From Prunella strophiata (taxonomy: Eukaryota; Chordata; Aves; Passeriformes; Prunellidae): DNA of 64,000 nt. Below, piece after piece: positions 30,413-50,611 of the stretch. The DNA is taken from NCBI GenBank assembly GCA_036583965.1, contig JAZBQD010000015.1:19224310-19288309 (forward strand). The letters are read 5' to 3'. The notes beneath the pieces were generated by a model, which was not told the DNA's origin, ran no database searches, and saw only the letters and a list, made by a program, of their open reading frames with translations. The translations under genes and the position numbers were made by a program. The number at the start of each line of letters is the position of its first letter. Within the stretch, counting starts at the first letter, position 1.

Positions 30413-30654
30413 CAGTTTGGCTGAGCTGTGACGTGCTGCGGCTCTTTCTCGACAGCCCCACGATGGCGACCATCTTTGCACCGATGCTGGAGCGCCTCTT
30501 CTTGCTGCCGCCACCAACGGTGCCCACGGCCGTGTCCGACTGGCTGCCGTCGTTCTTCTCCAGCGTGTACATCTCCCCGCTGATGCTGGTGCTCTTAGTC
30601 ATGTTCTTTCCTGAGATGGCCATCTGTCTGCTTTGCATTTTGGATGTAAAGACA
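30413..30654 (-). CDS. RIMS2: RIMS2 internal exon before the C2B region
   Basis: Second recognised RIM2 exon, 242 bp. The acceptor is CTGACAG, with AG at 30656-30655, and the exon starts TGTC. The T completes AGT (Ser) with the AG left by either upstream exon. The protein reads VFTSKMQSRQMAISGKN, then MTKSTSISGEMYTLEKN, NDGSQSDTAVGTV, a Gly run, and KKRRSSIGAKMVAIVGLSRK, ending SQLSQT. The donor follows ACTG (GTAGGA from 30412), leaving phase 1, as expected if the next residue is the Glu of the conserved SQTE motif. FTSKMQSRQM and GAKMVAIVGLSRKS mark RIM2; RIM1 as I recall it reads SLSAKVVAIVSRRS here. The RRSS motif is a plausible basophilic kinase site (inference). This exon corresponds to the N-terminal part of the short RIM3-gamma protein, so a gamma-type start would lie upstream of it. 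CpG density is much higher than in the flanking intron. The next exon toward C2B was not found in 1-30412. Confidence 0.95.
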
Positions 30655-42720: not shown

Positions 42721-44528
42721 CGAGCGAGCGAGCGAGCGAGCGAGCGAGCGAGCGAGCGAGCGAGCGAGCGAGCGAGCGAGCGAGCGAGCGAGCGAGCGAG
42801 CGAGCGAGCGAGCGAGCGAGCGAGCGAGCGAGCGAGCGAGCGAGCGAGCGAGCGAGCGAGCGAGCGAGCGAGCGAGCGAGCGAGCGAGCGAGCGAGCGAG
42901 CGAGCGAGCGAGCGAGCGAGCGAGCGAGCGAGCGAGCGAGCGAGCGAGCGAGCGAGCGAGCGAGCGAGCGAGCGAGCGAGCGAGCGAGCGAGCGAGCGAG
43001 CGAGCGAGCGAGCGAGCGAGCGAGCGAGCGAGCGAGCGAGCGAGCGAGCGAGCGAGCGAGCGAGCGAGCGAGCGAGCGAGCGAGCGAGCGAGCGAGCGAG
43101 CGAGCGAGCGAGCGAGCGAGCGAGCGAGCGAGCGAGCGAGCGAGCGAGCGAGCGAGAGAGCGAGCGAGCGAGCGAGCGAGCGAGAGAGCGAGCGAGCGAG
43201 CGAGCGAGCGAGCGAGCGAGCGAGAGAGCGAGCGAGCGAGAGAGCGAGCGAGCGAGCGAGAGAGCGAGCGAGCGAGAGAGCGAGCGAGCGAGAGAGCGAG
43301 CGAGCGAGCGAGCGAGCGAGAGAGCGAGCGAGCGAGCGAGCGAGAGAGCGAGCGAGCGAGCGAGCGAGAGAGCGAGCGAGCGAGAGAGCGAGCGAGCGAG
43401 AGAGCGAGCGAGCGAGCGAGAGAGCGAGCGAGCGAGCGAGCGAGCGAGCGAGAGAGCGAGCGAGCGAGCGAGCGAGCGAGCGAGCGAGCGAGAGAGCGAG
43501 CGAGCGAGCGAGCGAGAGAGCGAGCGAGCGAGAGAGCGAGCGAGCGAGAGAGCGAGCGAGCGAGCGAGCGAGCGAGCGAGCGAGCGAGAGAGCGAGCGAG
43601 CGAGCGAGAGAGCGAGCGAGCGAGAGAGCGAGCGAGCGAGCGAGCGAGAGAGCGAGCGAGCGAGAGAGCGAGCGAGCGAGAGAGCGAGCGAGCGAGCGAG
43701 CGAGCGAGAGAGCGAGCGAGCGAGCGAGCGAGCGAGCGAGCGAGCGAGCGAGCGAGCGAGCGAGAGAGCGAGCGAGCGAGAGAGCGAGCGAGCGAGAGAG
43801 CGAGCGAGCGAGAGAGCGAGCGAGCGAGCGAGCGAGCGAGAGAGCGAGCGAGCGAGCGAGCGAGCGAGCGAGCGAGAGAGCGAGCGAGCGAGCGAGCGAG
43901 CGAGAGAGCGAGCGAGCGAGCGAGCGAGCGAGCGAGCGAGCGAGCGAGCGAGCGAGCGAGCGAGCGAGCGAGCGAGCGAGCGAGCGAGCGAGAGAGCGAG
44001 CGAGCGAGAGAGCGAGCGAGCGAGCGAGAGAGCGAGCGAGCGAGCGAGCGAGCGAGCGAGCGAGCGAGCGAGCGAGCGAGAGAGCGAGCGAGCGAGCGAG
44101 CGAGAGAGCGAGCGAGCGAGAGAGCGAGCGAGCGAGCGAGCGAGCGAGAGAGCGAGCGAGCGAGCGAGAGAGCGAGCGAGCGAGCGAGCGAGCGAGCGAG
44201 CGAGCGAGCGAGAGAGCGAGCGAGCGAGCGAGCGAGCGAGCGAGCGAGAGAGCGAGCGAGCGAGCGAGAGAGCGAGCGAGCGAGCGAGCGAGCGAGAGAG
44301 CGAGCGAGCGAGCGAGCGAGCGAGCGAGCGAGCGAGCGAGCGAGCGAGCGAGCGAGCGAGCGAGAGAGCGAGCGAGCGAGCGAGCGAGCGAGCGAGCGAG
44401 CGAGCGAGCGAGCGAGCGAGAGAGCGAGCGAGCGAGAGAGCGAGCGAGCGAGCGAGCGAGAGAGCGAGCGAGCGAGCGAGCGAGCGAGAGAGCGAGCGAG
44501 CGAGCGAGCGAGCGAGCGAGCGAGCGAG
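42721..44528. repeat. Giant CGAG tetranucleotide array (452 units)
   Basis: 1808 bp made of 452 four-base units in unbroken register. Units 1-109 (42721-43156) are all CGAG. From 43157 on, about 49 units (hand count) are AGAG and all others CGAG; no other variant was seen. Variants are commonly 4-7 units apart. The tract has one CpG per CGAG unit (about 400 CpGs) and is about three quarters G+C, inside AT-rich, CpG-poor intron. The RIMS2 transcript carries the complement (CTCG). No stop codon can arise from the pure unit, so the visible frames stay open with Arg-Ala-Ser-Glu repeats. That is a property of the repeat, not coding evidence. Confidence 0.98.
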
Positions 44529-44718
44529 CTATCTATCTATCTAGCTATCTATCTATCTATCATCTATATCTATCTATCTATCTATCATCTATCTATCTAT
44601 CTATCTATTATCTATCTATCTATCATCTATATCTATCTATCTATCTATCGATCTATCTATCTATCTATCTATCATCTATCTATCTATCTATTCTATCTAT
44701 CTATCTATCTATCTATCT

Positions 44719-44789
<71 letters not shown>

Positions 44790-49225: not shown

Positions 49226-49462
49226 CTGTCATCCTCTTTCCCTTCCTCAGCTTGGTCTTCTTGAGCTTTTTCATCATGCCCTGATTCTTTGATCTCCTCC
49301 TTATCACAGTTCTCTGTCACCTCTTGCCCTTCCTCTTTTTCATTAATTTCTTGCTCTTTTGCTTTTTCCTCCTCCTCTTTTTCTTCCTCCTCAGGAAATA
49401 CTTCATCTTGTTCATCCCCTTCCAACCCTCCCTCTTTTTTCCCCTCTATATCCCTTGTCCTT
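49226..49462 (-). CDS. RIMS2: Probable glutamate-rich cassette exon of RIMS2
   Basis: Open segment of 237 bp (79 x 3) between two recognised RIMS2 exons, same strand. Acceptor: a long T-rich tract, then GACTTCAG ending at 49463. Donor: GACAG, then GTAAAA (49225 downward), weak because +5 is not G. The preceding exon ends in AG. Here A completes AGA (Arg), 78 codons follow, and the final AG takes T from the next exon to make AGT (Ser). Inclusion and skipping therefore both keep the frame. The product starts RRTRDIEGKKEGG, has runs such as EEEEKEEEEK, and ends AEEGKEDD. By hand count it has 28 Glu, 8 Asp, 10 Lys and 3 Arg in 79 residues, so it is strongly acidic, probably helical or disordered, with no known domain. 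The purine-rich codons (GAGGAG, GAAGAA) could also act as splicing enhancers. I do not recall this insert in mammalian RIM2. The alternative is a purine-rich low-complexity tract that is open by chance, but the fit of length, phase and both splice sites argues against that. Confidence 0.75.
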
Positions 49463-50438
49463 CTGAAGTCAACAAAATTGAAAAAGGCATGCAAAAAGAA
49501 AAAAAGAAAAGAATAAATTAAAGTTAGGAGAAGAGCATGCATGAAAAAAAGGAAACTGCAAAAGAAATTAAATCAAAAGTAAAGGATAGGAGCAGACACA
49601 ATGTATGTCATGCTTGCTAGGAGTCCAGCCTACACTAGAGAGCTTTGGAGCATTTTCTTAGTAAGTCCCTATTCAAATAAAACTTAGCATGGCAATACCT
49701 CACATTTAGAAAGAAATGTGTGACAGAAACAATGTAGTCCTAACAATGCTCATATGAGCAGATGCTTAAATTTGTAAATGCTTTCTTTTAAGAGGACAAT
49801 TTTCTGAGAACTACTATAGGTGATGGAGGTGGGTTACACCTTCTAGAAAAATTATCTTTCCTTTGTGCACCAAATGAAACCCAAAGCTCATCTGAGTGCA
49901 CACAGGGTGCAGGCAAAGAAAATGCTGTGTTTTGGTCACAGATACACAATGTACAGCTTGTTGAAGAGCAGCTCAATGATTGTACACCTACAGTTAAATT
50001 GGACCAGTGTAAGTATTAAACAAATGGCATTGGTCTCTGTAAGTATTAAATAATACATCTATAAAAGTTCAGGGTTCTATTTAAAAGAAAAATAAGATGC
50101 CTCTGCTGGCACAAATTTTCGCGTTAAACTGTCTTTTCAGCCATACTAATTATATTTTACAAAATGGTTTTCAGAAAGTGTGTCTAATGCTTGCTGACAG
50201 CATCTGTTTGTTATTTCAGTGTATGTTAGATAATCCAAGACAACAAAACTTGGCTAAAAACAAATTCCATGAAGACTTCAAGAAGCATTAGGTAAAAAAG
50301 ACGTTAAAGCCAGTATTTCGCAAAATCCCCTGCAAATGTCATTCTAGGCGAAATGCTACTGTCAAATACAAATATTGCTAAGTGTTCCATTACTGAAATT
50401 GCTCAGCTATGGCTGACAGTGCAGCTCATCATGCTCAC
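49463..50438 (-). other. RIMS2: RIMS2 short intron, 976 bp
   Basis: Intron between the exon ending at 50439 and the glutamate-rich exon. Donor GTGAGC at 50438-50433. Its 3' end has a long T-rich tract with TTCTTTTCTTTTTTTC and TTTTTGCATGCC before GACTTCAG. No other exon was seen in it. A short direct repeat GTAAGTATTAAA occurs at about 50008 and 50039. Confidence 0.75.
49465..49555 (-). promoter_or_regulatory. Long AG-free zone before cassette-exon acceptor
   Basis: On the minus strand no AG dinucleotide occurs for 91 nt upstream of the acceptor of the glutamate-rich exon. Such AG-exclusion zones span the region from the branch point to the acceptor; ordinary ones are a few tens of nt. The zone contains pyrimidine-rich words of the kind bound by PTB proteins and a TGC motif. 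It suggests a distant branch point and regulated use of the exon (inference). Confidence 0.5.
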
Positions 50439-50611
50439 CTTATTTTCTTGTTTCCCCTGGGGCGCTCTGACTGCACAGACATGTAGCTCGTGCTGCTGAA
50501 GCGGGAAGCGCTGCTGGTGCGCGACACGGCCGAGACGTCGCTGACGTCGCTGTCCGAAGACTTGTTGGAAACATTGTCTGAGCCTCGGTGGGGATCCCGC
50601 CCTGACCGGTA
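50439..50611 (-). CDS. RIMS2: RIMS2 internal exon, Ser-rich C2A-C2B linker
   Basis: Internal coding exon of RIM2, a presynaptic active-zone scaffold that links Rab3 vesicles, Munc13 and calcium channels. Reading the minus strand, a good acceptor (pyrimidine tract, then TGCAG) ends at 50612 and the exon opens in phase 0 with TAC. It codes YRSGRDPHRGSDN near the start, SDVSDVSAVSRTSSASR in the middle and SERPRGNKKI at the end. The donor is strong (AAG, then GTGAGC at 50438-50433). Length is 173 bp: 57 codons plus two bases (AG). The piece SRFSSTSYMSVQSERPRGN fits RIM2 as I remember it; the RIM1 counterpart has SRLSSTSFMSEQ. The region is rich in Ser and basic residues and has no folded domain. 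It belongs to the linker between C2A and C2B, which is known to be alternatively spliced in RIM proteins. The AG-free stretch before the acceptor is about 42 nt, an ordinary length. The start methionine of the surrounding open frame lies in the intron and is not used. Confidence 0.95.

What the first reader, a model, noticed from the sequence alone, without database searches (positions are those of the whole stretch)
49226..49462. Glutamate-rich cassette exon in RIMS2
A 237-bp open segment with acceptor and donor sits in the intron between two conserved RIMS2 exons. It is divisible by three and has the same 2-base phase at both ends as the junction it interrupts. Inclusion would put 79 residues (28 Glu, 8 Asp, 10 Lys) into the C2A-C2B linker, next to very basic, Ser-rich sequence. 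Acidic blocks can bind calcium, basic C2B surfaces or SNARE partners, so the insert could tune vesicle priming in particular synapse types. I do not know this insert from mammalian RIM2.
Basis: partly seen in the sequence, partly recalled or inferred. Interest (0 to 1): 0.87.

Follow-up and report, generated by a model that had tools for sequence, protein, structure and literature searches.

The report
Glutamate-rich optional exon of RIM2
The stretch is a real protein-coding exon of the synapse gene RIMS2 that birds and mammals share; it is already in gene databases, so it is not new, although I found no paper saying what the extra piece of protein does.

Summary
Window 49226-49462 (minus strand) is a 237-nt, frame-preserving exon with good splice sites between two RIMS2 exons; its 79 codons hold 28 Glu, 8 Asp, 10 Lys. 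The same insert at the same junction is in all 144 bird RIM2 rows fetched (23 species).

The novelty does not hold. All 120 mammal RIM2 rows (37 named taxa) carry an orthologous 82-84-residue insert at that junction; a primate insert finds this exon by tblastn at E = 2.9e-17. The exon predates the bird-mammal split and is in public models; ten paper searches found no description of it.

The acidic-block idea is weakened: net charge is -19 to -26 in 19 distinct bird inserts but -4 to -16 in 27 mammal ones, and the Glu run varies in length. A C-terminal core is better kept.

New lead: two UGCAUG (RBFOX) sites lie 26-79 nt upstream. By published rules they predict repression in RBFOX-positive neurons and inclusion in RBFOX-poor sensory cells. 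That is inference: no RNA was examined, skipping was not seen directly, and the RIMS1 paralogue and non-avian reptiles were not tested.

The parts
49226..49462 (-). The 237-nt RIMS2 exon (79 codons, phase 2-2)
   Evidence: Splice sites and frame; the same insert in bird RIM2 models; primate insert matches here at E = 2.9e-17
49457..49468 (-). CAGAAG tandem acceptor at the exon's 5' end; the second AG gives an insert one residue shorter (RTRD in place of RRTRD)
   Evidence: Sequence; both forms among Acridotheres tristis models (P0016, P0049). A still later start (RDIEG) is in P0053 and P0122
49488..49493 (-). UGCAUG (RBFOX-type) site, -31 to -26 from the exon
49536..49541 (-). UGCAUG (RBFOX-type) site, -79 to -74 from the exon
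50439..50611 (-). Upstream RIMS2 exon (YRSGRDPHRG...PRGNKKI)
   Evidence: start read from the CAG|TAC acceptor
30413..30654 (-). Downstream RIMS2 exon (SVFTSKMQ...SQLSQT)
   Evidence: end read from the ACTG|GTAGGA donor

Best explanation
A genuine RIMS2 exon that predates the bird-mammal split. SHOWN (about 0.97): splice sites, frame, presence in bird models, orthologous insert at the same junction in mammals. INFERRED (about 0.45): it is an optional spacer. It adds about 79 charged, mostly non-hydrophobic residues between the proline motif RQLPQLPPK and the Ser-rich stretch before C2B, so it changes the reach and charge of the tether between the RIM-BP/calcium-channel part and the C2B part of RIM2. 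The better conserved C-terminal core, with one Ser (Thr in one bird) that has acid at +3 in nearly all rows, may be a CK2-type phosphorylation switch. INFERRED (about 0.3): RBFOX bound to the two UGCAUG sites upstream represses the exon in RBFOX-positive neurons, and RBFOX-poor cells include it.
For: Splice sites and frame. Insert present in 144 of 144 bird rows and 120 of 120 mammal rows fetched. Bird-primate alignment score 160 against mean 67, sd 8, maximum 112 in 5,000 shuffles. tblastn of primate insert and of whole squirrel RIM2 to this exon, E = 2.9e-17 and 3.8e-13. Order RQLPQLPPK - insert - C2B in the consensus; RIM-BP site between the C2 domains (PMC6960213, passages); C2B binds liprin-alpha and PIP2 (PMC10634917, passages). 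Acid at +3 of the conserved Ser/Thr in 263 of 264 rows, which are isoforms and not independent. One predicted helix, residues 24-50, mean pLDDT 60.8. Two UGCAUG in the 100 nt upstream: 7 of 10,000 shuffles reach that. Upstream RBFOX sites generally inhibit inclusion (PMC10987577, passages).
Against: No RNA was examined and no isoform without the insert was fetched, so 'optional' rests on the matching phases and on recall of RIM2 forms without it. The names are mostly predicted models. The UGCAUG test was chosen after looking; with 200 or 300 nt upstream the fraction is 0.23% or 0.87%, the window as a whole has no excess of the motif (42 found, 48.7 expected), and conservation of the sites in other genomes could not be tested. 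The structure model is of low confidence. A group of four YCAY within 45 nt downstream, which would point to NOVA-promoted inclusion, is not significant (11.8% of shuffles). No binding or phosphorylation evidence.
Confidence: 0.6

Rival explanations
1. The insert works through its acidity: the Glu/Asp block binds Ca2+ or shields the basic C2B region.
For: 28 Glu and 8 Asp of 79, net -23, beside flanks of net +4 and +9.
Against: Net charge falls to -4 to -16 in the 27 distinct mammal inserts against -19 to -26 in 19 bird ones, and the Glu run is the most length-variable part. No known Ca2+-binding family matched: 0 Pfam families, 0 PDB sequences. It could still hold in birds.
Confidence: 0.2
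2. The exon is constitutive, or nearly so, in birds: a normal part of the linker with little regulation.
For: All 264 rows fetched contain it, but the searches ranked for it, so this says little.
Against: Phase 2-2 and length divisible by three allow clean skipping. The RIM2 form I recalled from memory lacks it. RIMS1 has optional segments in the same protein region (PMC10634917, passages).
Confidence: 0.17
3. A chance open purine-rich segment, or an artefact of gene prediction that is not used.
For: 2.4% of shuffles keep the frame open; the database names are mostly predicted models.
Against: Same junction, frame and conserved core in birds and mammals, far above composition-matched shuffles.
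Confidence: 0.02

Closest known systems
Bird RIM2 isoform models with the insert (e.g. Chamaea fasciata X22, P0002; Corvus cornix X18, P0004)
   Same: Same insert, one residue different in P0002, same junction, same gene
   Different: Only small residue changes, Glu-run length and the exact acceptor used
Mammalian RIM2 isoform models with the RPKGIEEGGKEGD... insert (e.g. Chlorocebus sabaeus X13, P0146; Pan troglodytes X25, P0241)
   Same: Same junction (KKI|...|SVFT), same kind of sequence, shared core
   Different: About 45% identical to this exon, far less negative, shorter Glu run, and a longer C-terminal end (QWNKEDLQRRFSQDD) without a counterpart in this window
Optional segments of RIM1 (rat N83-W105, H1084-R1169, A1207-T1378, as given in PMC10634917, passages)
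   Same: Optional coding segments of the paralogue, two of them in its C-terminal half
   Different: Whether one is the paralogous exon was not tested: the genome search did not complete
Rims2 splicing events reported in Rbm5 knockout brain (exons 20-22; PMC7381114) and Srrm4-mutant inner ear (PMC3464207); passages seen
   Same: Regulated splicing of the same gene in mouse
   Different: The passages do not let me match those exons to this one

Membership tests
RIMS2 coding exon | Splice sites and a phase that fit the neighbouring RIMS2 exons | tested here: met
RIMS2 coding exon | Present at the same junction in RIM2 proteins of other species | tested here: met
   144 of 144 bird rows and 120 of 120 mammal rows fetched; both searches list only the best 120
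Cassette (skippable) exon | Transcripts with and without it | not testable with these tools
   No RNA data; rows were ranked for the insert
RBFOX-repressed exon | UGCAUG close upstream of the exon | tested here: met
   Two sites within 79 nt; 7 of 10,000 shuffles of the 100 nt have two or more; post hoc choice of motif
RBFOX-repressed exon | Inclusion rises when RBFOX is lost | not testable with these tools
   Needs RNA-seq or a minigene
Musashi-promoted photoreceptor exon | UAG cluster in the proximal downstream intron | tested here: not met
   One TAG (+23) in the first 200 nt, two more at +273 and +278
Known Ca2+-binding or other catalogued domain | Match to a Pfam family or a solved structure | tested here: not met
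   0 Pfam families and 0 PDB sequences at E up to 1

The most novel reading that the evidence does not exclude
A RIM2 linker module kept since before the bird-mammal split is switched off by RBFOX in ordinary neurons and switched on in RBFOX-poor sensory ribbon-synapse cells (photoreceptors, hair cells), giving them a RIM2 whose C2B part is differently spaced, charged and phosphorylated relative to its calcium-channel part.
Probability: 0.2. Interest if true: 0.65.

Novelty: already known. Interest (0 to 1): 0.33.

Why it matters
The exon is already in public gene models. What may be useful is the comparison: an insert shared by birds and mammals, a core that is kept while the Glu run drifts, and a concrete regulatory prediction that existing brain, retina and cochlea RNA-seq could test. 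RIMS2 variants underlie a congenital human retinal disorder with neural and pancreatic features (PMC10049380, passages), so knowing which RIM2 form sensory synapses use would matter.

Tried and rejected
Pfam and PDB sequence searches with the insert gave nothing. Musashi-type control was set aside for want of a downstream UAG cluster. NOVA-type control was not significant. The mammalian C-terminal extension was sought in the window; the best match had E = 1.1 and was elsewhere (whose output was cut in the middle). The 330-nt form from acceptor 49555 is in none of the 120 rows. Ten paper searches listed no paper that I recognised as describing this exon; I read passages, not whole papers, of 14 of them. 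The 2017 photoreceptor RIM study was sought by an identifier recalled from memory and is not held; I saw only what a review says of it. The first translation was in the wrong frame and was replaced.

Full report
WHAT IS THERE. On the minus strand, window 49462-49226 reads as an exon: 78% C+T over the 100 nt before it, acceptor TTGACTTCAG|, 237 nt, donor CAG|GTAAAA. Its RIMS2 neighbours are 50611-50439 (YRSGRDPHRG...PRGNKKI) and 30654-30413 (SVFTSKMQ...SQLSQT). The junction it interrupts and its own two ends are phase 2, so it can be added or left out without a frame change. Of 20,000 dinucleotide shuffles, 482 kept the needed frame open, so an open frame alone would be thin evidence.

BIRDS. 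A protein search with flanks and insert listed 120 RIM2 rows, all birds, 99-100% of the region covered at 90-100% identity: songbirds, crows, a parrot, raptors, an owl, a gannet, a penguin, an owlet-nightjar and a goose. With 24 further bird rows this makes 144 rows from 23 species, by my count of the printed names. One search found the insert between ...KI and SVFT in 120 of 120 rows. Forms beginning RRTRD and RTRD occur in one species (Acridotheres tristis, P0016 and P0049) and fit the CAGAAG tandem acceptor in the DNA; two rows begin later, at RDIEG (P0053, P0122). The Glu run differs by a few residues between species.

MAMMALS. Birds fill any list made with the bird insert (120 of 120 rows each, the second in spite of human-like flanks). 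All 120 rows were mammals, 37 named taxa by my count. One search printed the insert for 111 of them by one pattern and the region of the other 9 separately: all 120 carry an insert beginning RPK at the same junction, 82 or 84 residues long. Bird and primate inserts align with score 160, against mean 67, sd 8 and maximum 112 for 5,000 shuffles of the primate one. By tblastn against the window, the primate insert hits this exon at E = 2.9e-17 and whole squirrel RIM2 hits it at 3.8e-13, both at 45% identity. So the exon predates the bird-mammal split. Non-avian reptiles, amphibians, fish and RIMS1 were not tested.

WHAT IS KEPT. One search aligned 19 distinct bird and 27 distinct mammal inserts; its pattern dropped 36 bird rows (crows and a jay, with Met before the KI), which one search had shown to hold the insert. 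Shared positions: EGG.EGD near the start, then, after the Glu run, inE...G.e.t..c.KE...eSG..eK.q.D..E.Gke. Net charge is -19 to -26 in the bird set and -4 to -16 in the mammal set, and the Glu run is the most length-variable part. One Ser in the core (Thr in Peucedramus) has acid at +3 in 263 of 264 rows, the exception being P0122-type SGHG in one bird row; rows are isoforms and not independent, and reading this as a CK2-type site is recalled consensus, not a test. AlphaFold2 on the 78-residue piece with 25 relatives gives one helix (24-50) with mean pLDDT 60.8 and pTM 0.25: low confidence.

HOW IT MAY WORK (inference). In the alignment of whole proteins the order is RQLPQLPPK, insert, C2B. 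RIM-BPs bind RIM between the two C2 domains (PMC6960213, passages), and C2B binds liprin-alpha and PIP2 (PMC10634917, passages). The insert so alters length and charge of the tether between the two.

REGULATION (inference). Two UGCAUG sites lie at -79 to -74 and -31 to -26. Two or more occur in 0.07% of shuffles of the 100 nt, 0.23% for 200 nt and 0.87% for 300 nt; 0.2% of all 100-nt sense-strand windows here hold two; none lies in the 300 nt downstream or in the 300 nt upstream of the two neighbouring exons. The motif shows no excess over the whole window, and it was chosen after looking. A review says that RBFOX bound in the upstream intron generally inhibits inclusion, and that photoreceptors and hair cells express little RBFOX (PMC10987577, passages); a mouse study saw no RBFOX protein in photoreceptors (PMC4991804, passages). 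RIM2 is the RIM reported at photoreceptor ribbons (PMC11536687, passages). Together these suggest skipping in ordinary neurons and inclusion in sensory cells. Against: one genome only; a non-significant YCAY group downstream. A photoreceptor-enriched human RIMS2 isoform with an unusual 5' exon is reported (PMC10771650, passages); whether it holds this exon I could not see.

VERDICT. Observation confirmed; novelty not. It is an exon already in public RIM2 models of birds and mammals. I found no paper on its function in the searches, which cover only open-licence papers.

Noticed in passing
window 42721-44789: In the same RIMS2 intron a 1.8-kb array of CGAG units (42721-44529) runs into a CTAT array (44529-44789). 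It gives spurious SER/ARE-type tblastn matches to the Ser-Arg-rich parts of RIM2.
   Followed up: partly
window 49457-49468 (-): CAGAAG tandem acceptor at the exon start; database isoforms use at least two starts one residue apart, and two rows a later one.
   Followed up: partly
window 49226-49555 (-): An upstream acceptor at 49555 would make a 330-nt version that is also in frame; none of the 120 bird rows has it.
   Followed up: partly
mammalian RIM2 inserts (e.g. P0148), C-terminal end: Mammals have a further conserved end (QWNKEDLQRRFSQDD) that the bird inserts lack and that has no convincing match in this window: a longer exon or a second one.
   Followed up: partly
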